From Beverwykella pulmonaria (Eukaryota > Ascomycota > Dothideomycetes > Pleosporales > Melanommataceae), in assembly GCA_001599595.1 (NCBI GenBank), contig BCHH01000014.1:257587-321586 (forward strand): 64,000 nucleotides of DNA, written 5' to 3'. A program made the position numbers and the translations under genes. This document shows positions 12,886 through 61,680 of the stretch, piece after piece; within the stretch, counting starts at the first letter, position 1; every line of letters starts with the position of its first letter. The notes under the pieces are model-generated. The model saw nothing but the letters and a program-made list of their open reading frames with translations. It had not been told where the DNA came from and did not search any database.

Positions 12886-13887
12886 ATGGCGACCACCACA
12901 GCACCTCGCACATACGCGCTTTACCAATATCCCCCTACTCTTGCCGGGGCCATCATTTTTTGCATCCTCTTCTTGTCGACGACCGCTTTCCATTTGTACC
13001 AAATGTTTAGGAAGAGAACTTGGTTCCTTATCCCACTTGTAATCGGCGGAATATGCAAGTCGAACCTCTCCAATACGACGAGCGCTGTAAGCTAACTGCT
13101 TTGCTACGTAGGTGAGTTCGCTGGGTACGCTGCACGATCGAAGTCCGCGACAGAACCTACAGGGCATAATCGCCTCATGCCCTTCGTCATTCAGAACATG
13201 TACATTCTCATTGCGCCAGCTTTGTTCGCTGCTACAATCTACATGACCCTCGGCCGGATTATAAAGTTGATCGAAGGAGATCAACATGCCATCGTCAGTG
13301 GCCAGAAGCTCACGAGAGTCTTTCTCTTGGGGGATGTTTTCTGTTTCGTCCTGCAGTCTCTTGGTATGTACTCTTCCGCTCTGGGCGTACATTTAGTCTT
13401 CTAGGAATTAATAAAGCTAATAGGGGGAACTCTAACCGCATTGGCAATGATAAATCAAAAGTCCACAAAGGCCAAATTCGGGCAAAATATCGTTCTTGCC
13501 GGCATCATTCTACAACTACTCTGGTTCGGATTCTTCATCATCGTGGCCTGGCAGCTGCAACACCGTTTGAATCGAAATCCCACTATAGCGTCTCGAAATC
13601 CAGATATCCAGTGGAAACGATACCTGTGCTCTTTGTACTTCGTCAGCGGACTAGTAATAGTACGATCTATCTTCCGAGTCATTGAGTTTTCGCAGGGACA
13701 CGATGGATATCTTCAAAGCCATGAGGTGTACTTTTATCTGTTCGATTCGATCCCAATGTTTGTTCTTATGGTATGGTTGAATTGGCAGCATCCTGGTGAG
13801 ATTGCATTACAGTTGCAGAGTACCGGAAATGGGGCTGTTGAGTATGTCATGGGTACGGATGTTGAAAGCTCAGGTGGTCGAAAGTGA
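12886..13887 (+). CDS. RTA1-like seven-helix membrane protein (lipid-translocating exporter family)
   Basis: RTA1-family proteins are fungal plasma- or vacuolar-membrane proteins tied to resistance to toxic lipophilic compounds and to sphingoid-base movement. I read three exons: 12886-13054, 13112-13363 and 13424-13887, total 294 residues. Intron 2 is ordinary (GTATGT...TAG). Intron 1 begins with GCAAGT instead of GT and ends CTACGTAG. Splicing there restores the family segment GGICEFAGYAAR; unspliced, the frame stops at once. Hydrophobic helices are clear (for example LAGAIIFCILFLSTTAF, MYILIAPALFAATIYM). Family marks include the YILIAPALFAA segment and the late FRVIEF region. The position beside the regulator and NRPS suggests self-protection, but many fungi carry unlinked paralogues. 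Confidence 0.85.
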
Positions 13888-14427
13888 TGAGAAGGTAGAG
13901 AGGTGTGACTCTTTTAGAGAGGGATAATAATAGTGGATGTAGGCTTATACGCTAACGCTGATGTAAAAATATGGAGGTTGATATACTTCAGTGAATACTA
14001 CACAGTCTGGTGAATTTCGCAAGGCGTAGTGAAGATCTACAGGATTCTGCTTGACGGCTGAACGCCTTTCGGCGGGCTGGGACTGATTTGAGCGCTGGCT
14101 ATGTTTGGGCATTCGCAAGATGAAAGGCGTGCTAGTGGCACGGTAGCGGAGCATGATTAAGCTTGCGAGGTCGACGATACAGCCGGAAACAGGGATGACA
14201 ATCCATCTATGTCGGATAGGTTGAAACTAATTGAGCTCGGGTTTTTCTTTTCCTTGTAAGAATATCTAAGCAATAGATCTCTGAATGGTGAAGGTGTTGG
14301 ATCGGTATTCTTGGCTGTGTAGAACAGTGACAACGAATTCCCATTTCTGCTATAATTGCCTCCTTACTATGCTTGTTGCTAAGTCGGTCGATGGCACGGG
14401 CCCCCAAAAATCTTGAACTCAATGCAC
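13888..14427. other. Convergent intergenic region
   Basis: This lies between the 3' ends of the RTA1 gene and the transcription factor. No gene was seen. Confidence 0.5.
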
Positions 14428-15734
14428 TCAGTCGTTGCTGGCCTCTTGAAGCTCTCGTCTCCGAAGTATAGACGTAAGAGAATCCATGGGAGGAATCCAT
14501 CCGACCTGCTGAAGAGGCCACTGTATCCAAGGATGATACTCAAGAGGGAGCCTCTCATGAATTCCGGAAAGGAGATGCGGAACCCAAAACCCCATTGCCC
14601 AATTCGATGATAGGTCGTGTATCGGGACACAGGCGTAAGCGAATATCGTAAGTGCGACCGGATTGAGTTGCTGCAGAAGGTCTGTGAAGCCGCTCGAGCA
14701 CCGATAAAGCCATAGTCCGATACTGCGAAGTTGCGACTGCGCCTTCCGGCCTTCCGCGACATATCTTGAGGAGTATAGCCGGGAAAGCTCCTCGAGGGCA
14801 GAGTGGAGAATATGTGATTCCTTGGGACATGTTGAAACGGACGTGATCATATCGCGGAGGCGATCCAGCTGATCAGATTCTGAAGACGGCAATGGTATAC
14901 AAGGTTGCAAGGCAGCTAAAATACCATCCTTAATCATTGGAGCCAGCGGTCCATTTTTGATAATCTCGCCATATGAATCGAATACCGGATGGGAGCCTCG
15001 AAACAGTGACATCCACTCAGCAGAGCCGTTATCGCTGAAGAGTAAGAAGTCTCCGGGCGTTGGCCCCCTGGCTAGTGTGAACGAGGTACACAAGCTCGAA
15101 AAGAGGAAAAGATAGTGGCAGTTGTCTTCGTTCAAGTTCCGCAATAATGAGGTGGCTATCCGTAGACCTGCCTGGTAATGTCTATTTGCGTGATCGAGAT
15201 AATGTTGCTTATTTTTTGGATTGAAACGAGCAAGATGCAATGCAGAGAGACCGAGAACCATGTGGAGGATATGAACGTTGGAGAATCCGATTCGTGGGAC
15301 ATTTGTTCTCATGAAGACTTCCAGCATCGGATTATCTGAAAGCGAAATGCATGTTGTTGTGACATAGTTGTGCATCAATTCAGCAGTAATCGGCCCCCAT
15401 TCAACAGGAAATTCATTCTCTGCAATGGTTGTTGTGGATGTTGCTTCACTTGGTGCAGAATCCTCGTAGCGAACCGTTGATGTTGAAGCTGGTGAATTGC
15501 CGGATGAGGTTGGACTTTGCTGCGAAGTGGCTGAAAAGCTGCAAACAGCTGAATGTTTGGTACAATTCTTGCACCTTGGTTTCGATTCATCGCACTAATG
15601 TATGCTCAGTACTAACCATGAGAAGAGCGGCTGGAAATCACCTTAATTCTTCTTCTTTTGCAGACGAGGCACCCAAGACGCGACTTGGGATGCGACCTAC
15701 GCTGTCCGAGCCCTGTGTACTGGGCTTCAGGCAT
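14428..15734 (-). CDS. Zn2Cys6 transcription factor, candidate pathway regulator
   Basis: A fungal binuclear zinc-cluster activator of 419 residues, in two exons: 15734-15642 and 15594-14428. The 47-bp intron (15641-15595, GTGATT...ATTAG) lies inside the zinc cluster, so the motif only appears after splicing. Its Cys residues are at 22, 25, 32, 39, 42 and 49, the exact CX2CX6CX6CX2CX6C spacing, with the basic run KRRRIK between. A Ser/Thr/Pro-rich linker follows (about 53-85). The rest is helical and resembles the regulatory domain of UPC2-like (sterol-uptake-type) factors, with HMVLGLSALHLA near the start. It lies directly downstream of the NRPS on the same strand, the usual position for an in-cluster regulator. 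The known HC-toxin regulator TOXE is a different protein type, so its role here is inferred from location only. Confidence 0.85.
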
Positions 15735-16676
15735 TCTGGGAGGGAGGCTCACAGTTCAGGTCTTTAGGCCTTGAGGTTGTTACTACTGATAGAGAGGGTG
15801 GCAATATAAATGGTGAAGTGTGACATCAAGAGTGTTGACAAGGGGCAGAGGAATAGCGATGGAGGATGGAGTGCAGCCGGCTCGGAAACACTTCGGCTCC
15901 GTCGTGGCTCCATATGGCCCGTGCAAACGCTTTCCTGCCAACCAATCAAAAAGCCTTTTGAGATCGTCGTCTTGAATCAACATCGTATATCTGAAAATTG
16001 GAAATAACAGTACGTAGATTTAAAAGTATTATGTTTAAAGAGTTTCGATTTCTTGCATGTCCTATTAGCTGTCGCAAAATTATTTCTAATGAGTACGTCC
16101 CGTCATCTCAATGCAGAACGACGGCAGATATATTGCTCATTGTTTATGTAAGAAGAGCGGCGATACGGTGAAGTGAACTCAGGCAGAGGGAGAAAGGATT
16201 AAGTCTGCTCTTCCAAGCTCTACCGCATGTGCCGATTGTACTCTTACTAACGCCTATTAGGCATCCTCTCTACATCTCCGTTATCCTCCTGGGTCCCAAA
16301 ACGTAGTCGATGCTTTCATCTTTGCTGAAAAATATAATAGCACAAAGCAAGCCTAAACCAATCCTATTGCCATCAAGCTAAATCGAGCGGTGAAACATGC
16401 GTGCAATTCGCCTTAAGACGTGAAAGGTTACAGGAAGTTGTTTCATGTGTTGGGAGTGTATCACGGTGTTAGAGGACAAATTTAGAGAAACAAAGTCATT
16501 AAACCATTAACACAAAAGAATAAGAGCCATGCGCGCGATACGAACCACCAAATCCAATGGCTTCCCTAGAAAACAACCAATGAGCCCTAAGAATCCCAAA
16601 GTCAAACCCAAGCATTATGAAAAATCAATAATCCAACGCCAACAACCCCCGAAACAACATCAAATGAGCTCCCCAA
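15735..16676. other. NRPS 3' flank and promoter of the transcription factor
   Basis: 942 bases without a supported gene. CGG triplets suited to zinc-cluster factors occur near 15880-15905 (a CGG-N2-CGG arrangement), about 150 bp upstream of the regulator's start. This might allow autoregulation, but such triplets are common. Confidence 0.4.
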
Positions 16677-19600
16677 CTATATAGTCAGCGCCTCAAGCCC
16701 TCCAATGGCTCCTTCCAGGGCATCCAACCTAACCCACTCCTCAACCACAGCCCTGTACATGACAGCAACCTCCATCATCATGCTCTTATCCATGATGCCC
16801 GACCAGTATCCCAGCTGTACCTCCAAGCTTCTCTCCCCAAGCAACACACCAAGCACGACATCGAATTCCGGTGCTCTCGTCCCAAACAGTGTGTCGAAGT
16901 TGAGCGCTGAGCCGCCACTCTTCTTGTCATTGGCGCTGGGATAGTACCCATTCGCGCTCTCCTCGTTTGCGTACTCGATAGAGAGCACAGAGTTCCAAGC
17001 GAGCATGCCATCGGCGGCTTCTTTAGCATTTGCTGCGGCCACGAAACCGTGTTGGTGGTCTAGTGTTTTAAAGAAGGAGTCGTGCGTCTTCTTCAACAAC
17101 TCCTTACTGCTCTCCTCATCTCCGATCTGTATCTTACAAGCCAGCATGTTGATCATAGGTCCAACTAATTCATCGACCCCCGGGATATCGAGCTCGCGGT
17201 TCGCGGTGATGTATCCGAAGAGCACGTCGTCTGATTTCGTGAATGCGCGTAGGACAAGGACCCATGCCGCCTGGAAGAGCGTTGCGGGTGTGATTTTGTA
17301 TTTGCGGCAATGCCGCGTTATGGCTTCTGTGGTGACACCGACGCTAATGGGGACGAGGATGTTCTCGCCCTTGTCTGCGACATCGATTGTGATCTTGCGC
17401 GGGATGTGGCAGGGTGTAACATCCTCGAGATAGGACGTCCAGAAATCATTCGCTGGACCCATGTCCTGCTTCACCATCCACTCGACGTAACTGGAGAAGC
17501 CCGGTGCAACACCCTCAGGTAGTAGATCTTGATATGCGAGAACGAGATCCTGGTAGATAATGCGGGTGGACATTCCATCTTGTAGCGCATGGCTGATCTC
17601 GAGCTTACAGTACACCGCGTCACGCGTCTGGAAGATTGTGAAGCCGACGTGTGGCTTGAAGGAGGAGTGTGAGACGGTGTGGTGGTTCTTAATGATGCGG
17701 GTCACATTTGTGATGTCGCAGTTGATGACGCCGACTATGGGTGTGTAGTCTTTGAGGATGAGCTGAGTGGATTCGGAAGGGTTGGAGACATTGGGAATGA
17801 AAACGGTACGCAGAGCCTCGTGGCGGGCGGTCACTTGCTTCCAGGCGGACTGGAGGCGAGCAATGTCAATTGTGGCAGAACCACCGGGAGTGATCTTGTG
17901 GGCGGTGTCGGACTGGTAGGATCCAGGAGTGATCTTTTGACTGTTCAGCATGCGCTGCTGGAGAGGTGTGCAAGGAACGATAGCCGCTACGTTAGACAAT
18001 GGCACGTTGATGTCGGCGATCACCTTTTCAAGGCTAGAAAGCTCAGCGTATTCCAAGCCAAGAAGAGGGAAATCGCTGAGAGTTGACTTGCGAGCCATGG
18101 TGACCAGATTAGAAGCAAGGCTAGGAAGTGACTGCTCGATGGTACTAATAAAGTTGGCAAGTGTCTCTTGCTGGGAGAGCTCGGCGCTGTGGGTGAATTT
18201 GATTGTGATTTCGCCGTTGGCGATAACGGCAGAGACAGTGATGACGGCTTGAGGAATCCCAAAAGTGGGCCTTCGGAGAACTTCCTCGTCATTGATGGTG
18301 GTGTATTCGATCGAATCAGCAAGGATCTCGACATACTCAGGAATAGACCGCATAAGAGAGGCACTGATATCCTCAGTGGCCCGATTGTCCTTGGCTTCGC
18401 TGAGAAGTTGGATGAAGTCCTGGGCATCGGTCTGTGGCAGTTGGCGGATGCGGTTGAATTGTCCCACAGTCCTGGCGTGTCGCGACTCCTCCTTGATGGC
18501 GATGGAAGCAGAACGACCAAAGGCAGTGCTCCACGCCTTGGCTAGGACAGCGACCAATATATCAGCGGGCTCAGTCGAGAGGGCGTTATTGCTGGCGCCC
18601 AGAAGTGTTGAGGTAACTCCAGAGGGAAATGTGATAGACCTTTCGACGATGTTGGCAGTCATGAGGGTGTCACTCTTGATACCCCAAGCACTGAAGTCGG
18701 CAGCAGGGTTTTCAATGCTAACGGAAGCGCGGCCCTGGATAAATAGAGACTGGAAAGACGAGGCCTTCGCTGCGACCATGTTGCCTTCAAGAAGCTGGCG
18801 AATATCTTGGATAATGATTCTTACCGACGCAGTGTCGGCAATCAGCGGATGGATAGTAAACGCTATTTGCTGGCTGGATGTTTCCATGAGGTCAAAGAGG
18901 TGAACCGCGAACAAAGGTCCATTCTCAACATCCAGCTCGATTTCATTGTTTGCCAGGAATTTCTTAACGTCGTCTCTGGTAGCAAGAGCATGCGCTTCGA
19001 AGTTGTAGGAACTCGCAAGCTCTCTCGTAATGGTCTGGCACCATTGTTGCTCAGAATCGCGCGAGAAACGTGCGCGAAGCATGGCGTGCTGCTGAACAAC
19101 ACCCTCGATAGCTCGGATGAGCTTTGGCACTGTAGTTGATGAAGCTAAATGTATCAGGTGAGTCTGAGCCTCCACCTTGTTGTCAAGGAGGGTCTTTTGC
19201 CAGGCCGTCAATGAAAACTCTTGCCCAATGACATCCTCTGCTCCCTCTTCTCCAATGAACTTTGCTTCAACGGCGAGGTGTGAGATGCTCTCACAAGTAA
19301 GGATGTCACGCACTGTTAGTAAAATACCTGCAGCCTGGCCCTTGGCCCTGAGCTGCATAGCTGTGATCGAATCACCTCCCAAGTCGAGGAAGGATCGGTT
19401 CATGTTGATGCTTGGGAGACCAAGCACGCTTGAAAGAAGATCGTGCAAGCGCTTCTGCTGTTCTGTTGCTGGCTCGCCGCCCTCATCTTTATCTCCTCCT
19501 ACGATTGTTTCGTATACCTTATCGTCCATTTCTACCAGCCACTTCGTCGTAGTCACCCTGTCCATCTTGTTGTTTGGTGTTAATGGAAGCGCACGAACGA

Positions 19601-22600
19601 TTATCCACACCGCAGGCACCATATAGTCAGGCACCTTGGTTGCGAGGTGGTTGCGGACACTGGAAATTTGCACATCTGCAATGCCCTTGTCGAGACCCGA
19701 AACCAATTTCAACTGGGTTTCTGGGCTGAGAGTTGATGACAGTGACTCAAGAGAGAGCACCGCAACTAGCCTCTTCTGAAGATAACCAGCCTTTGGGAGT
19801 AGAACGACTGCCTGGTTGACGCGTGAGTCGGCGACAATATGATGCTCGATTTCGCTGAGTTCGATACGCTGACCGTGATGCTTGACTTGAAAGTCCTTTC
19901 GGCTCACATAGCATATAGTTCCTTCGGAGCTGTACTTGCAGAGATCGCCTGTCTTGTACATGCGACGGGTTTTGCCAGAGCCTTGGGACCAAGCAGGGTC
20001 GAGGACAAATGCGGCATCAGTCTTGGCCTTGTCGTTGAGATATCCGCGAGAAACCATCCTTCCCTCGATGACAAGCTCTCCGATAGCGCCAATTGGTGCA
20101 AGCTTGTTGTGGTCCTCTGCGTCGACGATCCACATATGGCACCCAGATGGTCGGCCGAGGTCGGCGGGGTCGCTCTCGATCGTTAGAGGAACTGCGTCCA
20201 CGCAATGAATGCTGCACTCCGTCATACCGTAGGAGATGATAAGATCGACCACAGAAGCCCATCGCTGGACATTGTCTTGAGTGAGCAGCTCTCCGCCAAG
20301 GATGAGCCTCTTGAGAGTAGGAACCGCCTTGGGATCGAGCATACCGGCAACAGTTGGGGTCAGGAACCCGTAATTGCATTTCATTCTATTGATTGCACCG
20401 GGGAGGTCATTGATGCGCTCATCCTCAGATGGTACGCAAATGGTTCCTCCACGCTGGAGGGTGGTGAAAATGTCAGCTACACTTACGTCGAAAGTGTAGG
20501 CAGCGAACTGCAAAAGTCTAGTCGTGGGTCCGACCTTACGATTCGTTCCGTGAGCCTTCGAGCTGGTGCAGAGAGAGCCATGCTCGACCACCACACCCTT
20601 CGGTTTGCCCGTGCTACCAGAGGTAAACAGCACGAAAGCTGGATTGTTAGGAGAAACGTTGGGGAGCGCAGTGGATAATGTAAGGGCATCGAGCATGGCT
20701 TGGTCAACAACGATTGCCTCGTGGATACCGCTGAATTTGTGGGAGTGTATGTTGTCGGTAAGAACAAATCTTGCACCAGCCTGCTCGACAATCTCGCTCA
20801 TACGGGCAATCGGCGAGTTGCGGCCAAGGTGGACGCAAGCACCTCCCGCCTTGAGAGTTGCCATCATGGCAATAACGGTGTACATAGATTTGTCGAAGCA
20901 CATGGGTACGAGGCACTCCGGCTTGATACCTTTCTCGACGAGGTAAGCGGCCAACTTATCAGTGAGCTCATCGAGCTGCTTGTAGGTAACCTCGCCGTCC
21001 CATGAACTGACAGCGGTAGCGTTCGGACGGGTCTTGACCTGCTCCCGGAAAATATTGTGCACACAGTCATCGATCTCTTCGATTTCGACCAGGTTGTTCC
21101 ATTCCACCAATTGCTGGACATGTGCGGGGGTGACAAGGCCAACATTCTTAAGAAGGGTTGATTGGGATGCATTGATAAGTTGATGAACGACAAACTCAAA
21201 TTGGTCCAGAACAATGCGAGCCGATGCCTCAGGAAGGGCCTTGTGATCGAACTGGAGCTCAACGTCGACACGGTTCTCGCTCATGACCATGCATTCAACA
21301 ACAGCGGCATAGATGTGGAAGCCACGGAGGAGTTCCTTGTCGAGGACCTCCTCGAGCAGTGAGCCTTGCTCAATCTCCCCCAGTGGCTGTTGGATGACAA
21401 ATAGGTTTTTGAGGTTCTGTTTCTCCCCGGCCATAGCGTAGATGTTCTGGACACCGGCATGTTCGAAAGGAATCATGTCAGTGGATTGCTGCTGGACGGT
21501 GGACAAGAACTGGGCGATGGTAGAGGTGGCGTTGATCTGGAGTTGAATAGGTACTGTTGTGATTGTTGGGCCGACGAGGCTCTCAATATCTTGAATGGGG
21601 GCGTTACGTCCAGAGTTGGTGGCGGCAAAAGCGACATCCTCAGAACCCATATACCGGCTAGTTACGATGGCCCAGGCAGCGCGAAGAATAGTGGAGAGCA
21701 TGAAACCCTTGTCCGCGTCGCGAACGAACTCGATTGTGCGAGTGACCTCAGAATCAGGAGATGGTTGATAGGTGGCGGAAGGAAGATGCGGGAAGCTGTT
21801 GGGCGTTCCTTGTCCAAGTTGCTTCTTCCAAAATGTCTTGCACTCCTCCGCATCTACCTCGGTGATGAGCTTGATGAAGCGGTTGAAGCCTGGTGCAGCG
21901 CTGAGTTCTGCGCCGTTGTAGAGAGCTTCAAGCTGCTCCATCAAAGTGTTGGCACTGTGGCCATCGTATAGTGCGTGATGAACAGTCCAGATAAAGTGAC
22001 GATGCTCGGAGTCCAGAGCCCATCGAGCAAGAGGGCTTCCGTACTTTATGAATGATGATTTGTCGCGAGCTAGGTAGTCGGGCAGAGCAGTCTCAGGTTG
22101 TTGCCACGAGATATCCTCGTTGAGCACGACCTGGACAGCGCCAGAGGTCTTGGAGAGAACAATGCGAGTTCTCAAGATTGGATGGAGGGCAACGAGCTGA
22201 GTCCAGGCGTTCTTGAAACGCTGAACATCAATGTTCTCCTGGAGACGAAACACGCGCTGAGCAGTATACGCGCCTTGCTGCTGAGTCGCAAGCTCCATAA
22301 GGCCTTCTTGAAGAGGTGTGCAAGGATAGATATCCTCAATAGTTTCTTGGAGTACTTCGCACTGCTCAGCAGCATCTTCAACTAGGCTGGCCTCGGTAGG
22401 AGCCAATGAGAATGGCGCAATAGGACCGGTGGCTTCGGCAGCATCTGAACTTGCAACAACAGCCATGTCGCACAAGACAGGGTTCTTGAAGATGTCGGCG
22501 ACAATGAGATTAATACCTACGGATCGGGCCATAGAAGTAAGGCGCATGGCTTTGATGGAGTCACCACCCTTGCTAAAGAAGCTGTCGTCGGCGCCAACTG

Positions 22601-25600
22601 AGGTCGGATCGATACGGAGGAGTTCTGCCCAGAGAGACTGCAACGCAATCTCCATTCGAGTTGAAGGAGCGCGCTTAGAAGCGTGATCTTCCTCGCTGCC
22701 GAGCGAGTATTGTTGAATCTGGTCGATGGTCAAGGCGGCGCCAATGCGCTTCAATGCGTTGCGGTCGATCTTGTTGGTCTGGGTCTCTGGCATCTTGCGC
22801 AGTGGGATGTACAGCGAAGGCACCATGTATGCCTGAAGAGATTGCGCGATATGCTCCTTTAGCTTTACGAATTTGGCATTGAGGGTCGTAGTCAAGGGCA
22901 GGACCTCTTCGGAGTCATCCTCAATGTCCTCAGCAGAGGGAACGACAAAGGCTGCCAGAGCCGCCTTATCGACGTCTCCTTCTAAGAGGATTTTCTCAAC
23001 CACTTGCTTTTGGGCCCCGATAGAACTAGTCTTGACGTGATGCTCGATTTCTCCAAGCTCGACGCGCAGACCACGAATCTTAATCTGCGTATCCTTACGA
23101 CCCAGACAGAGCATATTGCCATCTTTGATGTAACGCACCAAATCACCAGTCTTGTAGAGCCTGGTAGGGTTGGGTGAGATCTTGGAGGACCAAGCAGGGC
23201 TGTAGATGTAGGATTCATTCGTCTTCTCAGGGTTCTTAAGATACCCTCGTGCAAGCAGCGGTCCTTCGATGAGGAGCTCACCAACGCAGCCGACAGGCAC
23301 CAATCGATCGTGGTTCTCCTTGTCAACGACCCAAGCGCGACCACCCTGCGTCTTTCCGATCATCGAGCACGGAGTGTCGAGGTGGGATCGGGTCATGACG
23401 GCCAGAATGGAGCATTCAGCTGGGCCGTAGTCGTTGAAGAGATTGACGCGAGGAGCCCATCGAGCATGAATATCTGCTCGGAGAGGCTCACCACCAAGAA
23501 TAATCGATTTCAGTCCTGGAACCTGGTCAGGATGGAAGGTATCGGCTACAGTCGACACCATAATGATCCAGTCGACTTTCAACTCGTTAATGGCGCCAAC
23601 TAGATTGTTCATTCTATCGTATTCGGATGGTACACAGACGCAGGCGCCCTTGACGAGAGGCGAGAAGCTCTCGAAGAGGCAGATGTCAAAAGTGTGCGTT
23701 GCGAATTGGAGAACGCGACAGTCCTCGTGAAGGAGGATCTGAGGAAGCTGATAATGGGCCATCGTGCAGAAGCCACGGTGCTCGATGATGACCCCCTTGG
23801 GCTTGCCAGTACTACCAGAAGTGAATACTATAAAGGCAGCATTCTCAGGTCCGTACTCGGCAGCAACGAAAGTACTATAGCTCTCAGGCATGGAGTCGAC
23901 GAAAGCCTGATCGATGGATAGGATGTTTGGAACCACACCATCGAAGATAGAAGCGTGTTGAGGGGCAACAAGGACTACATCAGCCTCGATATCCTCGAGG
24001 ATGCTAAGCATGCGAGGCATAGGGTAGTTTGGTAGAAGCTGAACACAAACACCTCCAGTTCTCATGACGGCGAACATGGAAATGATATTCCACAGGGACT
24101 TGTCAAAGCACAAGCCAACCTTGACTTCTGGGCCAACACCAAGCGTGACTAGGTGATTCGCAAGCTTGGAAGTGATGTGGTCAAGCTCACGGTACGTGAC
24201 ACTACCGTCCCAGGCACAGACTGCCTCGGCCTCGGGCCTGCGGGCAACGTTCTGGGCGATCAGGTCGGGAATTCTGGCATCGATGCTCGGAGGAAGCTCG
24301 GCGTTCCAGGTAGTGACGTCCTTGAAGTCGTACTTGTTCAAGAGGCTGATCTGCTCGATTGGCCTGTCGGCATCTCCGGAAAGCTCTTGCACAAAGTGCT
24401 CGTATTGGTGAAGCATGCGGGTCATTTGCTCCGTAGGAATGATATCCTCATCGTACATAGCCTCGATGGTGAAATCATTGTTCTTGCCAATGTTGCAAAG
24501 GACCACGAGAGGGTAGGTGTCGAAATTATCCTCAGATCTGGGAATAGACTCAAGGTCTAGAACAGTCTCACTGCCTTCGTCGGCAGGTTGGATGACAAAA
24601 AGATTTGTGATGCTGTCGACGGTGGTTTTGGCCTCGGCGCTAACATCTCGGATGTTTTGCAGTCCGAAGTGTTCATAGTCGATGGAAGCAATGGATTGGT
24701 TCTGAACATTCTCGAGGAACTGCTTCACAGTGATACCTTCCTTGGGAGCGAAGACACGGACTGGAACAGTGGTAATGGTAGGACCCATCATGCTGTCAAT
24801 TCCATCAAGCGCAAGGTTGCGACCAGCAAGGGTCTGTGCGAAAACCACATCCTCAGAATCGGCGTAGGTCGCAAGAGTCAATGCCCACGCAGCTCTCTTA
24901 ACCGTAGAAGGAAGGATATTGGATTCTGGGCCGCGGGCAAGAGGATCGGGTTGTGTGCCCGCACGAGTAGTGCCATGGACTGAAATGGTCTTCTTGGAAG
25001 CAGCTGCATATCCGAGCCCAACTTCGGGATAGCTGGTAGGGAAGCTACCCATATTGGTGAATTGGCTCTTCCAGAAATCGACATTGGCGGACTCGGAGAT
25101 TCTGCTGAGACGACCGATGAAGGTCTTGAATTGGGTGGAGCTCGTGACCTCCTCGCCGCCGTAGGCTTGAGCAACCTTCTCAAAGAGTAGGGCTACGGAC
25201 CAGCCATCGTAGATGGCGTGGTGAGCCGTCCACACAAAGTATTCCCGGTTAACAATGGCCAAGCGCATGAGGGGCTGGCCGTATTGGAAGGCATGAGCCT
25301 GGTCCTTGGCTAGGTAGGCCTCTAAGTCGCTAGCTTTTTGCCATGAGATTGGCAGCTTGTTGACAACTTGGAGATTACCAGAGCTAGAAGAGACAATTCG
25401 GGTGCGAAGGATAGCCTCAGTGGCGATAACTTTGGACCACGCGGATTGGAACTTGGAAATATCGAGGCTCTGAGGAAGACGGAAAACCTTCTGCGCAATG
25501 TATGCTCCCTCCTTCCTCAGACCCAAAGCCATCATACCCTCTTGGAGCGCGGAAGTGGGGTAGATGTCTTCGATATCCGTTGTAGATATGTTGCACTCAG

Positions 25601-44792: not shown

Positions 44793-46521
44793 CTACGCCA
44801 TCACCCTCGGCCTAAACCTCAGCATCGGCCCCTCTTTCGCGCTCGTGATATGGTCCCTAAGCTGGAACTCATTCGCCCTGTGTCTTCCATACTCGTTACC
44901 CACCCGCCCGCCTGCCTTATCGCTAGCATCCATCTTGAAGTCAAGTCTGAACATGACAACAGCGAACGTAGCCATCATCTCGACCAGCGCAACGCCCTTG
45001 CCCATGCACGACCGCGGGCCAACAGAGAAGGGGTTGTAGGCACTGTACATATCAAGAACCTGTTGACTCGCGCCCTCCTTCTCGACCATCCACCTCTCAG
45101 GGTTATAATTGAATGGATCGGGGTAGATATCCTCGCGGTGATGAATAGCGTAGATAGGGACACCGACGTCGCACCCGGCGGGGATGAAATCGCCATCAAC
45201 CATTGCGCCGCCGGCTGGTGCCTCACGGGCTAGAGTTTGACCGACAGAGGGTGACATGCGCATAGCCTCATCGATGCAGGCGCGCAGATAGCGGCAGGAG
45301 TTTAATTTTGCGCCGCCAGAGATATCCTCAACGCTGGAGAATGTGGCGCGAACCTCCTCGGCGGCCCTGGCATAAGCAGCCGGGTTGCGCGAAAGGTAGA
45401 AGAAGATAGCTGACATGGCTGTAGCAGACGTATCCGCGCCAGCGACAACGAGCGTCACGCTCTCAGCGACGATTTCCTCTTTGCTGAACCCCTTTCCTGA
45501 TTCAGGGTCCTTGGCGTGTGACAGCATCTCGAAGAGGTCTTTACGTTGAGTGCGGTCGTTCTTCTTCGTATCGCGGAGGAGCTTGCCTACAAAGCCGAGG
45601 AACATGTTGCGTGCGACGATGGCACGGGGGAAAAGGAGCTTATCGAGACGGAAGGCCTTGAGGATGGGTGCCTGGAGAATCGATGATACGCGAATATTGG
45701 ACTCCTCGATGCACTGCATCACGTAGCGGTACTGCTGGCGCTCGAGCATGTTATATTTGCCAGAGAAGATGAAGGTCGCCATCAAGTCGAAGGCAAGGTA
45801 GTTGCACCATTCGGACATGTTGCGTTCGGTCTTCCAGGTCGACGTCTTGAAGGCAGTCTCGGTGGATTCGCCACTCTCTTTGAGCTTAGCCTCTTCCTCC
45901 GACGTTTGGATGAGCCGGTCACAGAAGCGGTTGATGATTTCGTACATGTAGGGCTCGAAGGCGCGGAGAGTAGCGTCAGAGAGACCTTGCTGGATGACAC
46001 GTCGGCGGCGGCCATGATCTTTACGGTCGCGGACGGTGAGGGTGTTGGTGGCTTGGTGGACCATGGCGGCGTAGTTCTTGCTCTTGAGGAAAGGCTTGCC
46101 TTGACCATAGATGTCTGAGTGGTGGATTAGCATTATGCTCATGTTTGTATTAAGCGATTGACTTACTCTTGAGACCAGTGACCGTGTTCACATTGAGGCG
46201 ATTGGGAGCATATCGAACTTTGTCGCCATACTTCAGGTGACATCTCCACATATCGAGGTGGATATCGCCCTTCCAGGCATGGTAGCCAGCGTACAGATCT
46301 GTGAATTTGGCAAGGAAAGGGCCAGGGTACTTGGCGTAAGGGTGGAAAAAGACGTGGTAAATGAAGTTATAAATGAAGTAGCTGCAGAGACCAGCTGCAA
46401 TTACTGAGGAAGCAAGAACGATGCCTCGCTGAGCAGCAATAGTCTGGATCGCTGTGGCAAGGTGACGACTGGCACCAATTGCTGGCACAACAGGCGTGAT
46501 AATCTCGATGGGGCTGGACAT
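44793..46521 (-). CDS. Cytochrome P450 monooxygenase
   Basis: A 558-residue, ER-anchored haem monooxygenase in two exons, 46521-46167 and 46114-44793. The intron (46166-46115, GTAAGT...CTCAG) rejoins the segment before IYGQGKPF. A hydrophobic anchor lies at about 32-58, followed by HPYAKYPGP. The I-helix oxygen-binding motif AGADTS is at 343-348, the K-helix pair Glu401/Arg404 is in DEAMRM, NPERW is near 456, and the haem loop FSVGPRSCMG has ligand Cys488. All catalytic elements are intact. The gene is divergent from the FAS alpha gene, with 1,166 bp between starts. By analogy with HC-toxin/apicidin pathways it could oxidise the fatty chain (for example at C8 or the terminus), but the substrate cannot be read from sequence. 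Confidence 0.92.
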
Positions 46522-50600: not shown

Positions 50601-52829
50601 AACATCAAGTTCAACTTCCCCAAGCTTCCCGACTTCACCTCCGAGATTGAACAACTTTCTGCCCTTGAGGGTATGATTGATCTGGAGAAGGTCGTTGTTG
50701 TTACAGGGTTTGGCGAGGTCGGCCCCCATGGAAGCTCCCGCACCCGGTGGCAGATGGAGTCTCAGGGCCAGTTCACTTTGGAAGGTTATATCGAGATGGC
50801 CTGGATGATGGGACTTATCGAATATCAGAGTGGCGAAGGTCTTCCCTACAGCGGCTGGGTCCAAAAAGACACTAAGAAGCCAATCAACGATGCCGACATT
50901 AAGCAGCAGTATGAGGAACACATTCTTAAGCATAGCGGTATCCGTGTCTTGGATGCTCGTTCCCTCGATGGCCCCGACCCAGCTTCTCGTCAAGTGCTTC
51001 ACGAAATCGATCTCCAGCACGACTTTGCTCCCTTCGAGGTGTCTAAGGAGACTGCTGCTGATCTGCTCCGCGAGAATGGTAACAAGGTTACTATCAAGCC
51101 TGTCTCCGGATCCGACACCTGCATGGTCACTATGCATAAGGGAGCTCGCTTGATGGTGCCCAAGTCATTGGCTTTTGATCGAACTGTCGGTGGACAGGTA
51201 CCGACAGGGTGGTGCGCGAAGACATATGGCATCTCCGACGATATCATCAACCAGGTCGATCCCGCTACCCTGTACGCTCTTGTTTGCACAGCTGAGGCCC
51301 TACTTTCGGCCGGTGTGACCGATCCTTATGAATTCTACAAGTACATCCATGTTTCTCAACTAGGTGTCTGCGTGGGCTCAGGGTTTGGCGGAGCTGCATC
51401 CCTTCAAGGTATTTACAAGGAGCGATTCATGGATAAGACTGTCCAGAACGATGTGTTGGCTGAGTCCTTCATCAATACCGGAAGTGCTTGGATCAACATG
51501 TTACTTCTCTCTTCTTGCGGCCCCAACATTACACCCGTTGGTGCCTGTGCCACCGCTCTTGAGTCTCTCGATGTCGGATTCGAGGTGATCTCCAGTGGTA
51601 AAGCTCAGGCTGTGCTCGTTGGCGGATACGACTACCTCGCCAAAGACGTCGCCTATGAGTTCGCCAATATGAAGGCGACAGTCAACACTGACGAGGATTT
51701 TGCGCGTGGCAGAACTCCTGCCGAGATGTCCCGCCCTGCGACAACCACTCGTAGCGGGTTCGTCGAGTCTGAAGGCTGCGGTATCCAGCTGCTCACCACA
51801 GCAAAGCTTGCGCTGGAGATGGGTCTTCCCATTCACGGCGTCATTGCTATGACTCGCACCGCCAGCGACAAAGCCGGCAGATCCCTTCCTGCCCCTGGCC
51901 GTGGGATCATCAACATCAGCGGCTCTTCTAAGACTAGCTTCGAGTCCCCACTTCTGAACATGAGCTACCGCAAGCGTCAAATCGAGCTTCGAATGACACA
52001 GATCAGGGAGAACGAGCTCTCCGAGCTTGAGTATCTGGACCAGGAAATCTCTTCTTACAAATCCCAATCGGTCGACTTCGACCTCGAGGCCTACCGCCAA
52101 CACCGCATTGAGGCTATCACGACCGATACAAAGAAGCAACGGTCAGAGGTGCTCAACAGCTACGGAAATGAATTCTGGAAGCGCGATACCAAGATTTCTC
52201 CCATGCGTGGTGCCCTTGCTACTTGGGGTCTCACTGCCGATGACATTCAGGTTGCCTCTTTCCATGGCACATCTACGGTCAAGAACGAGCTCAATGAGTG
52301 CGGTGTAATCCAGGAGCAAATGACCCAGCTTGGTCGTGCCAAGGGCAACCCTGTCCTGGCTGTCTTCCAGAAGCATCTCACTGGCCACCCTAAGGGTGCC
52401 GCTGCTGCTTGGATGCTGAACGGCGCGCTCCAGATCATGGACTCTGGTCTCATCCCTGGCAACAAGAACGCGGACAACATCGACAACGCACTCGAGAAGT
52501 TCGACCACATTGCTTTCCCCAGCGAGACCATTCATACTAGCGAGGACGTCAAGGCGTTCATTGTCAGCTCCTTTGGCTTCGGTCAGAAGGGCGCCCAGGC
52601 GATCGGTGTGCACCCCAAGTTTCTCTTTGCGGCTGCCGGCAAGGAGGCGTATGCTGCCTACCGCGAAAAGTTACGCAGCAGGCAGGACAAGGCCTATCAT
52701 CATTTCCACAAGAGTATGATGACCAACACGATGTTCAGGGCGAAGGACGACCCGCCTTATACAAAGGAGAATGAGACAGATTTCTTGACGAATCCGGATG
52801 CGAGGCTACCTATGGATATGGTGTTGTAA
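47688..52829 (+). CDS. Fatty acid synthase alpha subunit without PPT domain (pathway-dedicated type)
   Basis: The alpha chain of fungal type I FAS, 1,694 residues, in two exons: 47688-47755 and 47813-52829. The intron (GTAGGC...ACAG) restores the N-terminal segment LLAHQFCSPVRWTETQD. Order: the C-terminal piece of the malonyl/palmitoyl transferase (about 1-100), an Ala/Pro linker, acyl carrier domain (carrier Ser188 in GGRSTLQNE), structural helices, ketoreductase (VTGAGKGSIG at about 653-662, YSESK at 807-811) and ketosynthase (Cys1268 in VGACATAL, His1507 in SFHGTST, His1548 in LTGHPKG). The chain stops soon after the ketosynthase. The usual C-terminal phosphopantetheinyl transferase domain is absent, as in shortened secondary-metabolism alpha subunits such as the aflatoxin/sterigmatocystin hexanoate synthases. 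The carrier domain would need another enzyme to charge it. It pairs with FAS beta downstream. Confidence 0.93.
49305..49352 (+). repeat. Arg-Ser dipeptide repeat inside FAS alpha
   Basis: Residues 521-536 are alternating Arg and Ser, encoded by varied codons (CGT, CGC, CGG; TCC, TCG, TCT), so not a simple DNA slippage tract. It lies in the linker before the ketoreductase domain. Confidence 0.8.
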
Positions 52830-55434: not shown

Positions 55435-58400
55435 ATGGACTTCGCAGGCCCACGCTTCATAGGCGAAATCAAAGAGGAGGAGTACGTGGTGCAGTGCACA
55501 TATGGTGGCTTCAATTTCCAGTTACCAGTCCCAGAGCATCTGCGGCTGTTTGCATGCCGAATGCGCAACGACTTCCTCGCATGTTTTGCAAACCAAAGCC
55601 TTCAAGAACCATGTTCAGATCTGCAGCTTCTGATCCAGTTTCTGAGATATCTGGCGGGCCGAGACGACAAGGCGACGTCCATGTCTTCGGAGCTGTTCTC
55701 CAAGGTGGTGGATAAGCTGGGTAGCGAACATCTCCAGGGAAGGGATATTCACACCCGTGCCGCGGAGCAGCCTGACTCGGAGCTCGCCAGCAAGCAAAAC
55801 ATAATCAGATCATACTTTGAGGCCATGCACCTGATGCAACGGCCTGTAGGAAGCCGGATACCGCATCTCTTTGCGGCATCTCATCCCTCAGAAAGGACCC
55901 CCACATACACAGTCTTTGGCGGCCAGGGAAACACACAGCAGTACTTCCAGGAACTCAGAGACCTCTACTCGACTTACGGCTGTTTGCTAGATGATATCCT
56001 GGATTTCGCATCCATGATTTTTGATCAGCTTTTGGACGACGAGTCGGTCATCGATCAGTACCCCCATGGCCTGGACTTCTTCAACTGGTTAAAGAAACCA
56101 GAAATGACTCCCGATCCAGATTATCTTCTCTCCGCCCCAGTCAGCTTCCCCTTGATTGCGCTCGGCCAGCTCGCCAGCTTCTACGTTGCGTGCAAGATTT
56201 GGCAGCTCACACCCGGTGAAGTTGTGGAGAACCTGCAAGGATCGACCGGCCACAGCCAGGGCATCATTGTCGCCGCCGGAATTGCAACATGCAGGACCTG
56301 GGACGACTTTGAGGGAGCGTTCCGGTCGTGTTTGATTGCGCTTTTCTACACTGGATGCCGCAGCCAGCAACAGTTTCCAAGGAAGACGGCCTGGCAGAAG
56401 ATGGTGGATGGTGATGCGGAATCCACGGCTGAGGATCCGACGCCCATGATGAATGTCATGCATCTTCCCCGCGCGGAACTCGAGAAACAGACGAACGCCT
56501 TCAACCAGCATCTCCCAGAAAATAAGCAAGTGGCCATTGCGCTCGTCAATGGGCCTTCCAACATCGTCGTCGGCGGCCCCCCAGAGTCATTGAAAAGCTT
56601 CGCAGACTGGCTCGAAGAATTCAAGAAGGCCTACACAAAGGCGAACCCCAAGAGCGGAAAGACAATCACAACAAGATTCTTGCCTATTACCGCGCCATTC
56701 CATACATTCTACCTCGCCGAGTCAAGACAGATCATCGTGGACGACATGGTCCGCCACAACATCGTCATCAAACCGAGCGATCTCCTGATTTCCGTCTACG
56801 ACAGCAAATCCGGCCGCGATCTGAGAGAAGTCGAGGAGGAAGCGCTCTTTCCGATCCTCACAGAAGCCATAACCACGCAGATGGTCGACTGGCCATGCGC
56901 TACTACATTCCCCACCCGCAGCTGCATCATTGACTTCGGGCCTGGTGAGACATCGGGCGTGGGAACTCTTCTACACCGATCAAAAGAGGGAACTGGGACT
57001 CGCGTTATCCTCGCTGGACCCCTCCAAGGATCTCTGCCTCACGTCGGATACAAGCCTGATTTGTTCGATGCGCCGTCCACCATTTCTTCGCAGCGCTCAG
57101 CGGACTGGCTGCGAGACTTTGAACCGACTCTGCTCTCTGATGCTTCAGGGAGGACGATGGTCAGCACCAAGATGAGCCAGCTGTTGGGTACGCCACCTCT
57201 TATGGTTGCGGGTATGACACCAACAACCGTTCATCCTGATTTCGTAGCTGCCGTCATCAATGCTGGGTATCACGTTGAGCTAGCTGCCGGAGGATATCCA
57301 AAGGAAGACATGCTCGTCAAGGCGATACGGACTATCGAACAACTCATCCCAGCCGGAAAGGGGATCACAATCAATTTGATTTACTCTGCGCCACGTGCAA
57401 TGCAATGGCAGATCCCATTGATCAAGAACCTCATCTCTCAGGGTACCCTTATTGATGGTATCACGCTCGGCGCTGGTGTACCATCGCTTGATATCGCAAC
57501 TGGCTATATTGAAGACCTTGGTCTGAAGCACATCTCCTTCAAGCCAGGCAACATCGACGCCATCCAGGCAGTGATTACGATTGCGAAAGCCCACCCTACA
57601 TTCCCAATAATGATGCAGTGGACTGGCGGACGAGGTGGTGGCCATCACTCAACTGAAGATTTCCACGCCCCCATATTGCAAACATATGCTGCTATCAGAA
57701 GGTGCCAAAACATTATCCTGGTTGCTGGTAGCGGATTCGGTGGATCAGATGATACATACCCCTACCTCACTGGCTCATGGGCATCAAAGTTCAATCAGCC
57801 TCCCATGCCCTTCGATGGCGCTCTTTTTGGTAGCCGAATGATGGTAGCAAAGGAAGCACATACCTCGCTCGCAGCCAAGCAAGCAATTGCAGCGTGTCAA
57901 GGTGTCGAGGACTCCATGTGGCAGCAATGTAAGGGCATCGTAACCGTCAAATCGGAAATGGGCCAGCCAATACACAAGATTGCAACCCGTGGTGTGCAGT
58001 TGTGGGCTGAGATGGACAAGACTATTTTCTCCCTCGAGAAGAAGAAGCAACTCCCCGCACTCGAGAAGAAGAAGGACTATATCATTGAAAAACTGAATAA
58101 GGACTTCCAAAAGGTTTGGTTCGGATACGATTTCTTTAGCGGCAAGGCCGTCGATCTGAAGAACATGACTTATCAGGACGTCGCCAGACGAATGGTGAAT
58201 CTATTCTATCTCAGCAAGCGCTCGCAGTGGATCGATCCTTCATACACTCGCATCTTCGGCGACTTTGTTCGTCGTATCGAGGAGCGTCTTCCTCTGTCCA
58301 ACTGGGAATTGTCCCAACCGATCTTTACCAGTTACGCCGATTTCGAGGAGCCCTTCGAGGCCCTACGCAATCTCGCCCACGCCTACCAGGACAGCAAGAC

Positions 58401-61400
58401 TCAGCTCATCAACCAGGAAGACCAAGATTATTTTCTTGCTCTCTGCCGCCGACCTGGCCAGAAGCCTGTCCCTTTCATTCCAGTTCTGGATGATAATTTT
58501 GAGACGTGGTTCAAGAAAGATTCGCTGTGGCAGTCTGAGTTCGTGGATGCTGTTGTGGATGAGGATGTGCAGCGGACTTGCATTCTTCAAGGGCCTGTTG
58601 CAGTCAACTATTCGACTCCGCAAAACATCAATGAGCCTGTCAAGGTGATATTGGATAAGATTAATGATGGTCACCTTGAGCGCATTCTCCAGCAGACATA
58701 TGGCGGAATCCGGAGGTCTATTCCTTCTGTCGAGTTCTTTGGTCATCACGCATCTCGCCAGTCTGCACGACAACACGGCGTCTCAGTCACGGTTGAGCCC
58801 AACGCAACTACTTTTAAGATTCCCACCGATATCAAAGAACTTCCCTCGAATGATGCATGGTTCGACCTCCTCGCCGGCAAGAAGCTTTCGTGGAGATATG
58901 CCGTATTCAAGAGCAAGACCGTTATGAGTGGACACGCTATGATTCCAAACCCTATTCGACAAGCCTTTGCCCCTGCTCACAACCTCTCCGTGATGATCAC
59001 TGACAAACTACGCCACAACTACGTTTCCATCACTATGAGCAGCAACGGCACGAGCCAGACCGATCTCTCCATTGCTACCGAGCCGGGTAACAAAATCATT
59101 TTGCGCATGTATTGCTACGAGAATGCGAACAAAGAAGCTCTGCCCCTTGAATTCCGCTTCTCGTACCACCCCGAGACTCCTCATTCCTTGCTGCATGAAG
59201 ATACTCACGGACGCACGGACCGCATCTGCGACTTCTACAAGAAGCTCTGGGTCGGCAAGGCATACAAGAATCCTGTTCTGCCCGCTGGAAGGCAAATATA
59301 CAAAGCTAATGGCGGCGAACTGGTTATCACGCAGGATCTCGTTGAAAAGTTCATGCAGACTATCGGCGGCGGGATGAGACGCATGGATCCGCAGGGCTTG
59401 GTGCCTATGGACTTCGCTATTGTGGTTGGCTGGAAGGCCATCATGAAGGCGCTCTTGCTTGTGCATGGAGACCTGCTGAAGTTGGTTCATCTTTCGAACA
59501 AGTTCCGCATGCATCCTGGTGCAGCACCTCTCAAAGTCGGCGACAAGACTGAGAGCTTTGCGCAGACGACTTCCATCACCATCGGCGATACGGGTAAGAC
59601 TGTCGAGGTTTGCGCTACGATCAGCAGAGACCACGTCCCTGTCATGGATGTCGTGTCTGAGTTCTTCTACCGTGGCGCGTATACCGATTTCTCGGAATCA
59701 TTTGTGACGCGCAAAGAAGATCTACGGGAAGTCAGCTTCTCGTCTGCAAGCTTGGCGAATCTGCTGCTGTCTAAGGAGTGGATCACATGGCATGAGCCTA
59801 TGGAGGTCGAGGAGCTGTGCGAGAAGACTCTGACGTTTGAGTTGGAGACTTTCTCTGCGCTCAAAGCCAAGGGCCAGCACAGCCGTATTCGGACTGTCGG
59901 AAAAGTATTCGCTATGTCCAAAGAGTCTAAGGGAGCGGTCGAAATTGGAACGGTGCACTACGACTCTAATACTAACGCAAGCCCGCCTACCAGTAACCCA
60001 GTAATGGGGTACCTCGACCGGCACGCCAAAGTCATCTCGAAGCGAATTATGCTCGAGCATCCTGTGTCCCTCGACTCCTCAGAAGAGGGTTTCGTCTTTG
60101 CTGCGCCAACGAGCAACTCCGAATACTCCAAGATCTCACAGGACTTCAACCCCATCCATGTCTCACCCGCCTTCGCGCGGTACGCCGGTCTGCCAGGCCC
60201 AATTACACACGGCATGCACACCAGCGCCATCATCCGGTCTATCGTCGAAATGCGCTGCGCGGCCAACAATCTCACTGCTATGCGCAACTTCTCCGCTACT
60301 TTCGCGGGTATGATTAAAGCTGGAGATAATATTGAGGTGCACCTTGAGCATATTGCCATGCTTGAGGGGAACAAGATTATCCGCATCGAGGCACGTAATG
60401 TCGGAAGTCAGGAGAAGGTGTTTATAGGCGAGTGCGAGGTTGAGCCCGAGGAGACGGCATACATCTTCACGGGACAGGGAAGTCAAGAATTAGGCATGGG
60501 TATGGATCTTTATGAGAGTAGTAAGGCGGCGAGAGAAGTTTGGGAGAGGGCGGATAAGCATTTCGACGAAAACTATGGTACGTCACTTCCCTCTCGCCCT
60601 CCACTGATTCGATTATCCTCCCTTGGACCCCTACTCTAATATCCAAGGTCGAAGCTAATCGTGTGACCAGGCTTCCGCATAACTGACATCGTCCGCCGTA
60701 ACCCCAAAACTCTGACCATCCACTTCGGTGGCCGTCGTGGAGCTCAAATACGCCAAAACTACCTCGCCATGTACTATGACTCGTATGACAAAGCTGGAAA
60801 TAAGACCAGCAAGCGCTTCTTCGATATACACGAGCACTCCCCCTCGTACACGTACCGGCACCCCAAGGGCCTTCTCTTTAGCACTGAATTCGCACAGCCG
60901 GCGCTTACGGTTATGGAGAAGGCTGCTTTTGAGGATATGGCCGCCAAAGGACTGGTGAGCGAGAAGAGCAAATATGCCGGGCATTCACTGGGAGAGTATG
61001 CCGCCCTCTGCGCCATCGCAAACATGATGCCGCTCGAGCAAATCCTGTCTATTGTATTCTATCGCGGCCTATCTATGCAGGTAGCCGTCGAGCGCGACGA
61101 AGAGGGCCGGTCCGAATTCGGCATGATGGCCGTGGATCCTTCTCGCGTGACGAAAGGCTTCAATGTCAAGATGCTCGAAGAAGTCGTCAGAGAGATTGCG
61201 TCTGAATCCTCAGCACTCCTCGAAATCGTCAACTACAACGTCGAGAACAGACAATATGTCTGTGCGGGCACGTTGCGCAATCTGCAGACGCTTACCGATG
61301 TCTGCAATGAGCTCAACGCTTCTGGCCTTTCCACCACCACCACCACCACCACCATCATTGCCAAGCATGTCAAGGCGAATGGAGACAAGGAAATTCACAC

Positions 61401-61680
61401 GCTTGACCGTGGTAAAGCGACAATACCCCTCGCAGGTATAGACGTCCCCTTCCATTCGTCCTTCCTCCGACCAAACCTCGCTGCCTTCCGCGAAGTTCTC
61501 GAAAAGAACATTCGTAAGGACTGGATGGATCCTGAAAAGTTGGTCGGACGGTACGTGCCGAATGTTACAGCGCGGCCGTTTGAGATTAGCAAGGAGGCGT
61601 TTGAGTATGCGTATAAAGTAACAGGGAGCGAGAGGTTGAGGGACGTGCTTGATGGGTGGGTCGATGAAGTCGAAGCGTAG
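55435..61680 (+). CDS. Fatty acid synthase beta subunit
   Basis: The beta chain of fungal type I FAS, 2,050 residues, in two exons: 55435-60577 and 60671-61680. The intron (GTACGT...CCAG) rejoins YG-FRITDIV. The ATG at 55435 is preferred over an in-frame one 27 codons earlier, because that extension is untypical and reads like leader. Order: acetyltransferase (GHSQG, Ser274), enoyl reductase (about 580-850, with PPLMVAGMTPTT and TGGRGGGHHS), dehydratase with a hot-dog fold (DFNPIHVSPAFA and GPITHGMHTSA late in exon 1), and the malonyl/palmitoyl transferase (GHSLGEYAAL, Ser1820). All catalytic motifs are present. In the HC-toxin locus the corresponding gene is TOXC, which also encodes a FAS beta chain. 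Its partner is the FAS alpha gene 2.6 kb upstream on the same strand. Confidence 0.93.
61331..61354 (+). repeat. CCA trinucleotide repeat coding a poly-Thr tract in FAS beta
   Basis: Eight tandem CCA units, read as seven consecutive Thr codons (ACC) within the transferase domain. This is a likely slippage-prone surface-loop expansion and keeps the frame. Confidence 0.9.

What the first reader, a model, noticed from the sequence alone, without database searches (positions are those of the whole stretch)
12886..61680. A variant HC-toxin/apicidin-type cyclic tetrapeptide locus with both FAS subunits
A four-module NRPS beginning with an A domain and carrying an epimerase in module 1 plus a terminal C domain sits with FAS alpha, FAS beta, a P450, an ABCC pump, a zinc-cluster regulator and two RTA1 proteins. 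From established knowledge, the HC-toxin locus carries a FAS beta gene (TOXC) and the apicidin locus a FAS alpha gene (APS5); having the matched pair side by side is unusual. There is no starter C domain, so the fatty chain probably enters as an amino acid (HC-toxin logic) and not as an N-terminal acyl cap. This could be a new member of the HDAC-inhibitor tetrapeptide family.
Basis: partly seen in the sequence, partly recalled or inferred. Interest (0 to 1): 0.9.

Follow-up and report, generated by a model that had tools for sequence, protein, structure and literature searches.

The report
Conserved fungal lipid-amino-acid peptide gene cluster
A fungal gene cluster, kept nearly unchanged in a range of related moulds, probably builds a small ring-shaped peptide containing a fatty amino acid made by its own dedicated fatty acid synthase; it works like the HC-toxin and aspercryptin pathways but is not shown to be either, and its product is unknown.

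Summary
In detail: an intronless 5,187-aa NRPS, both FAS subunits, P450, ABC pump, Zn2Cys6 regulator and two RTA1 genes lie where stated. The FAS pair is a second copy, outside the housekeeping FAS clade. Just outside the window, 5 kb past FAS beta, is a branched-chain-aminotransferase-like gene, which strengthens the "fatty chain enters as an amino acid" logic. Seventeen full-length NRPS orthologs (67-84%) have near-constant A-domain pockets; 12 of 22 ortholog rows share a contig length with a FAS-alpha and/or aminotransferase homolog. So the cluster is conserved, unlike race-specific HC-toxin. A matched FAS pair is not unusual: TOX2 also holds FAS alpha, TOXH (PMC3729494). HDAC-inhibitor membership is unproven: another regulator and pump, no P5C reductase or Methyltransf_2 match on the contig, a different E motif, and HTS1/APS1 could not be retrieved. 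A-domain trees leave modules 1 and 4 both possible for the lipid residue; I prefer module 1 (then epimerised), the reverse of HC-toxin. New variant of a known kind; product unknown.

The parts
16677..32240 (-). Four-module NRPS, 5187 aa, no intron: A1-T1-E1-C1-A2-T2-C2-A3-T3-C3-A4-T4-E*(degenerate)-C(terminal)
47688..52829 (+). Fatty acid synthase alpha subunit (ACP, KR, KS; no C-terminal phosphopantetheinyl transferase domain found); exon 1 47688-47755, intron, then to 52829; Phe at the KS acyl-gate position (yeast M1251)
55435..61680 (+). Fatty acid synthase beta subunit, one intron near 60.58-60.67 kb. (The BCAT-like aminotransferase gene of the cluster lies outside the window, at window-equivalent 66833-68071, + strand = L009:2833-4071)
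44793..46521 (-). Cytochrome P450 (heme motif FSVGPRSCMG)
38131..43000 (-). ABC transporter, probably ABCC, several exons; 5' end approximate
14428..15754 (-). Regulator with Fungal_trans_2 domain and Zn(II)2Cys6 motif (motif read by eye across one intron)
12886..13887 (+). RTA1-like membrane protein
33739..34927 (+). second RTA1-like membrane protein

Best explanation
A conserved, apparently vertically inherited Dothideomycete gene cluster that makes a cyclic tetrapeptide carrying one 2-amino fatty acid. Shown: the genes, their domains, intact or degenerate motifs, and co-inheritance in part of the orthologs. Inferred: the dedicated alpha/beta FAS makes a medium-chain acyl chain; the P450 and unknown enzymes give the 2-oxo acid; the linked BCAT-like aminotransferase turns it into the 2-amino acid; the NRPS activates four amino acids, epimerises the first with E1, joins them, and the terminal C domain closes the ring; pump and RTA1 proteins export or tolerate the product; the Zn2Cys6 protein regulates. 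My preferred order, at about even odds, is that module 1 loads the lipid amino acid, so that it ends as a D-residue. In mechanism it joins HC-toxin-like architecture with aspercryptin-like precursor supply.
For: Second FAS pair; its alpha subunit lies outside the clade of ten PPT-bearing rows (SH-aLRT 100), and of the FAS alpha genes only the C2 copy gave a PPT match. BCAT-like gene 5 kb away, in a clade (10 rows, 100/99) apart from the housekeeping-type copy L021. In Pleosporales sp. CAS-2024a the NRPS and BCAT locus tags are nine apart. KS gate (yeast M1251): Phe in 25 and Tyr in 2 of the 27 closest rows, Met/Ile in 47 of 49 PPT-bearing rows; M1251W together with G1250S raised C6 and C8 acids in yeast (PMC5353594, passages). 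E1 and terminal C motifs intact in 21 of 21 rows; module-4 E motif degenerate in 20 of 21. A-domain pockets near-constant in the 17 orthologs. The A1 clade (32 domains, support 1.0) holds a domain of 15 of 15 linked NRPSs and the last A domain of two six-module NRPSs with a PF07993 domain, P0023 and P0101; its nine read pocket positions fit D-[VTA]-L-x-x-G-G-[VI]-A in 14 of 16 rows (the final K was appended by the script).
Against: No product, expression or activity is shown. The A4 clade (34 domains, 0.974) holds a domain of 14 of 15 linked NRPSs (the missing P0019 is a partial protein) and has the same linkage statistics as A1 among non-orthologs (3 of 12 against 0 of 86), so module 4 may take the lipid residue as in HC-toxin; only its more variable pocket argues otherwise. 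BCAT linkage was not seen for Lindgomyces, Amniculicola, Lophium or P0002 although FAS is linked, and Mytilinidion (2.4-Mb contig) showed neither. The linked BCATs of Claussenomyces and Polytolypa fall outside the window's BCAT clade, so those links may be independent. Phe at the gate is not special to this cluster: 37 of 72 non-PPT rows have it, this cluster included, and the linked Sclerophora FAS has Leu. Relative P0021 (55%) has changed A2 and A3 pockets. No enzyme for alpha-oxidation is identified.
Confidence: 0.6

Rival explanations
1. True HC-toxin/apicidin-family HDAC inhibitor: module 1 loads D-Pro or D-Pip, module 4 the 2-amino-oxodecanoic acid, and the ring inhibits RPD3-type deacetylases.
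For: Same module count, one active E after module 1, no introns, similar length (5187 against 5218 aa for HTS1; PMC3729494 passages); terminal C as reported for HTS1 and APS1 (PMC3554632 passage); FAS and BCAT present; A4 clade shared by linked NRPSs.
Against: Zn2Cys6-type regulator and ABC pump in place of a bANK regulator and MFS pump; no P5C reductase or Methyltransf_2 match on C14; one P450 between regulator and aminotransferase, the next being 9 kb past it; Arg of the published E motif absent in 20 of 20 rows read, though the dead module-4 E keeps an RT(V/L)G stretch in many rows; no HDAC match on C14; conserved, not patchy. HTS1/APS1 not among the 120 listed hits, which only bounds their similarity.
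Confidence: 0.22
2. FAS makes a fatty acid for an acyl cap or another lipid; the aminotransferase is a neighbour with no role.
For: A GNAT gene and 5 kb lie between FAS beta and the aminotransferase; BCAT linkage not seen in some FAS-linked orthologs.
Against: No starter C domain, A1 is first; BCAT shares the NRPS contig in 7 of 17 full-length orthologs; the published HC-toxin and apicidin schemes use NRPS, FAS and aminotransferase together.
Confidence: 0.1
3. Member of the NPS4/AbNPS2/Pes1 group of conserved NRPSs with a surface-hydrophobicity role.
For: ChNPS4 is tetramodular and moderately conserved (PMC2823734, passages and section 28); Pes1/NPS4-named proteins are among the next hits at 33-40% identity.
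Against: In the trees A1, A3 and A4 of the window do not group with the A domains of the Pes1- and NPS4-named rows P0067 and P0111, and A2 only weakly; those two proteins have five A domains and several E domains. ChNPS4 itself was not retrieved.
Confidence: 0.05

Closest known systems
HC-toxin TOX2 locus (HTS1, TOXC, TOXH, TOXF)
   Same: Four-module NRPS with one E between modules 1 and 2, intronless, FAS beta and alpha genes, BCAT-like aminotransferase (PMC3729494 passages)
   Different: There: MFS pump, bZIP-ankyrin regulator TOXE, alanine racemase, mostly duplicated diffuse race-specific locus. Here: ABC pump, Zn2Cys6-type regulator, single compact cluster, conserved in many Dothideomycetes; whether HTS1 also has a degenerate E before its last C was not checked
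Apicidin / apicidin F (APS, APF) cluster
   Same: NRPS, FAS alpha, aminotransferase, P450s proposed for the 2-amino fatty acid (PMC4109984 passages)
   Different: There: no clustered FAS beta, plus P5C reductase, O-methyltransferase, FAD monooxygenase, bANK regulator, MFS pump
Aspercryptin (atn) cluster of Aspergillus nidulans
   Same: Aminotransferases thought to make 2-aminocaprylic, -decanoic and -dodecanoic acid for an NRPS product (PMC8262921 passages); its FAS alpha and beta genes are recalled, not from a call
   Different: Six modules, linear, C-terminal residue reduced (recalled); here four modules and a terminal C domain
Parastagonospora nodorum NRPS listed as SNOG_09081
   Same: Published domain string A-T-C-T-C-A-T-C-A-T-C-A-T-C-C resembles this layout if E is read as C (PMC4205913 section 7); a P. 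nodorum ortholog exists, P0011, 76%
   Different: That P0011 is SNOG_09081 is my inference; the string has an extra T; that paper's main text has no occurrence of fatty acid synthase or aminotransferase

Membership tests
HC-toxin/apicidin tetrapeptide synthetases | Four modules, A first, one active E after module 1, terminal C | tested here: met
   (plus a dead E in module 4)
HC-toxin/apicidin tetrapeptide synthetases | E motif (S/A)RTxGWFT(T/S) as published for HTS1; SRTVGWFTT in Apf1 | tested here: not met
   window SGTVGWFTT, 8 of 9 positions; Arg absent in 20 of 20 rows read, P0016 not read by the pattern; motif from PMC4109984
HC-toxin/apicidin tetrapeptide synthetases | NRPS domains group phylogenetically with HTS1 and APS1 | not testable with these tools
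HC-toxin/apicidin cluster | FAS subunit plus BCAT-type aminotransferase | tested here: met
   orthology to TOXF/APS4 themselves not tested
HC-toxin/apicidin cluster | bANK regulator and MFS efflux pump | tested here: inconclusive
   Regulator and pump found are of other types, but the genome-wide MFS search scored only 9 of 560 candidates, no bANK search was run, and the right flank was read by eye for frames of 170 aa or more
Apicidin cluster | P5C reductase and O-methyltransferase in the cluster | tested here: not met
   PF14748: 2 matches, none on C14; PF00891: 28 matches, none on C14; other methyltransferase families not searched
HC-toxin/apicidin family | Product inhibits RPD3-type HDAC, D-imino acid in ring | not testable with these tools
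   no product known; A1 pocket not compared with known Pro/Pip pockets
Aspercryptin-type | FAS pair and BCAT linked to NRPS | tested here: met
Aspercryptin-type | Six modules with reductive release (recalled) | tested here: not met
   four modules, terminal C
Housekeeping FAS | Groups with PPT-bearing FAS alpha | tested here: not met
NPS4/Pes1 NRPS group | A domains group module by module with NPS4/Pes1 | tested here: inconclusive
   not met against the Pes1- and NPS4-named rows P0067 and P0111; ChNPS4 and AbNPS2 themselves not retrieved

The most novel reading that the evidence does not exclude
An ancient, almost invariant Dothideomycete metabolite: a cyclic tetrapeptide whose first residue is a D-2-amino fatty acid (lipid residue first and D, the reverse of HC-toxin where it is thought to be last and L), kept by fungi of different lifestyles because it serves the fungus itself and not one host interaction. 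HC-toxin-like toxins would then be patchy relatives beside a conserved core pathway.
Probability: 0.3. Interest if true: 0.75.

Novelty: new variant of a known kind. Interest (0 to 1): 0.52.

Why it matters
It offers a defined, conserved cluster in which to test how fungi supply NRPSs with 2-amino fatty acids (which enzyme makes the 2-oxo acid, what sets chain length, which module takes the residue) and why such a peptide is retained widely. It also corrects two premises: paired FAS subunits are not rare in such loci, and HC-toxin-like anatomy does not imply a host-selective toxin.

Tried and rejected
Housekeeping FAS: rejected. Siderophore-type NRPS: not tested by a tree and no ornithine-monooxygenase search was run; set aside because of the E domains and the absence of T-C repeats. 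NPS4/Pes1 membership: disfavoured on two named rows. Cluster-encoded resistant HDAC: no PF00850 match on C14. My first idea that A1 is the only A-domain clade shared by linked NRPSs (97-domain tree) did not survive the 585-domain tree, where A4 is shared too; I keep A1 only as a preference because its pocket varies less. NCBIfam gave no named family over its cut-off for BCAT, P450 or the FAS frames. Ten paper searches listed no paper that I recognised as describing this cluster; most listed papers were not opened, and the library holds open-licence papers only. Aspercryptin papers PMC5119465 and PMC4724294 are not held.

P0011 and P0132 (many strains) cannot be compared that way. In one search the pattern gave no A4 reading for P0017 and a mis-hit in A1 of P0012. 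In one search domain fragments were merged by rule; A domains under 330 aa were dropped before the trees. Trees are quick searches; the own C2 and C7 rows are partial (49% of columns) and the deepest forks weak (19). One search sorted FAS rows by length, which misfiled short PPT-bearing rows; one search recounts by the Pfam column. Papers: passages only for PMC3554632, PMC3729494, PMC4109984, PMC8102738, PMC8262921, PMC6156440, PMC7071103, PMC4237128, PMC12278603 and PMC5353594; PMC2823734 passages plus section 28; PMC4205913 passages plus section 7; all other titles seen only in search listings. Names of orders, fungal lifestyles and the aspercryptin structure are recalled.
Full report
What is there. 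The window lies on contig C14 of a 45.6-Mb, 31-contig fungal genome. A single minus-strand frame (32240-16677) encodes an NRPS of 5187 aa from its first ATG. Pfam, motif and profile scans give A1-T1-E1-C1-A2-T2-C2-A3-T3-C3-A4-T4-E*-C. Around it lie RTA1, Zn2Cys6-type regulator, RTA1, ABC transporter, P450, FAS alpha and FAS beta genes. To the left are housekeeping-type genes and tannase-like pieces.

The adjoining 40 kb hold a class IV aminotransferase of the branched-chain type at window-equivalent 66833-68071 (L009:2833-4071, + strand), with a GNAT gene between it and FAS beta. [quoted passage not shown]).

The FAS is dedicated. The genome has one other alpha/beta pair, on C2, and a lone alpha-like gene on C7. 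A PPT match within a FAS alpha frame was found only for C2. In a 46-row tree the ten PPT-group rows, C2 included, form one side of a branch (100), and the window protein lies outside, with its orthologs. The KS gate position (yeast M1251) is Phe or Tyr in all 27 closest rows and Met or Ile in 47 of 49 PPT-bearing rows. In yeast, M1251W with G1250S raised C6 and C8 acids (PMC5353594, passages). This suggests a medium chain and no more: 37 of 72 non-PPT rows carry Phe.

The cluster is conserved. One search lists 17 full-length NRPS orthologs at 67-84% identity, among them Lophiotrema, Aaosphaeria, Zopfia, Parastagonospora nodorum, Glonium, Mytilinidion and Lophium, then relatives at 49-55%, one from the lichen fungus Dirinaria. 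Pocket motifs are near-constant in the orthologs. The window reads A1 DVLMAGGVA, A2 DVQLNGLVN, A3 DIFMIGDIL, A4 DVALIGSIH; Dirinaria differs at 5 of 36 of these positions, all conservative, while P0021 (55%) has changed A2 and A3. Matching contig lengths between the NRPS, aminotransferase and FAS-alpha tables link 15 of 120 NRPS rows to one or both: 12 of 22 ortholog rows against 3 of 98 others. The three others, Sclerophora, Polytolypa and Claussenomyces, have larger NRPSs of other layouts; the aminotransferases of the last two fall outside the window's aminotransferase clade, that of Sclerophora inside (93/91). Negative cases: Lindgomyces, Amniculicola, Lophium and P0002 (FAS, no listed aminotransferase on the contig), Mytilinidion (neither), Glonium (FAS on another contig), and short or multi-strain contigs that cannot tell.

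Which module takes the lipid residue. In a tree of 585 A domains the A1 clade holds a domain of 15 of 15 linked NRPSs and the sixth A domain of two six-module NRPSs with a PF07993 domain (P0023, P0101); the A4 clade holds a domain of 14 of 15. Linkage does not separate them. The A1 pocket is more constant and lined by small residues (14 of 16 rows fit one pattern), so I favour module 1, which E1 would turn into a D-residue. If aspercryptin's C-terminal residue is 2-aminododecanol (recalled), the sixth-domain grouping points the same way, although P0023 and P0101 are not shown to make aspercryptins. In HC-toxin the last A domain is thought to take the lipid amino acid (PMC8102738 passage).

Degenerate E. 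The E-type domain of module 4 has lost the second His of HHxxxD in 20 of 21 rows and keeps it in P0046, so epimerisation at residue 4 was probably lost within this family (inference).

Comparison with known systems. Architecture and precursor genes resemble HC-toxin; the paired FAS is no novelty because TOXH is reported in TOX2, though a later review says no alpha subunit was identified. Regulator, pump, E motif and distribution differ; P5C reductase and Methyltransf_2 genes exist in the genome but none on C14; an MFS pump nearby is not excluded, which scored 9 of 560 candidates, but none of the window frames scanned is one. Aspercryptin uses two aminotransferases for its 2-amino fatty acids (PMC8262921 passages). 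For P. nodorum a listed NRPS, SNOG_09081, has a similar domain string (PMC4205913 section 7); that it is P0011 is inference.

Verdict. A real, conserved lipid-amino-acid NRPS cluster; it works like the HC-toxin and aspercryptin pathways; HDAC-inhibitor membership is untested and weakened.

Noticed in passing
G000:C29:21020-57529: Condensation-domain matches within a single open frame of 12,878 aa, an exceptionally long NRPS.
   Followed up: no
G000:C7:1135559-1136134 (L015): A lone FAS-alpha-like gene; no matching beta was found by PF08354 outside C2 and C14. Long branch in the FAS tree.
   Followed up: partly
window 10797-11722: Tannase/feruloyl-esterase pieces in separate minus-strand frames (one over, one below Pfam's cut-off): intron-containing gene or decayed copy.
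   Followed up: partly
window-equivalent 71225-72553 and 77607-79070 (L009, L010): A second Fungal_trans_2 protein and a second P450 right of the aminotransferase; could extend the cluster.
   Followed up: no
Lindgomyces ingoldianus P0250 and P0257: Two close FAS-alpha paralogs (81% and 77%) on different contigs, only one on the NRPS contig.
   Followed up: no
Aspergillus hancockii P0152 and P0335: Related aminotransferase and FAS alpha two locus tags apart on one contig; no A. hancockii NRPS among the 120 listed.
   Followed up: no
window 34930-38130: 3.2 kb without a convincing gene between RTA1 and the ABC transporter, G+C 0.459.
   Followed up: partly
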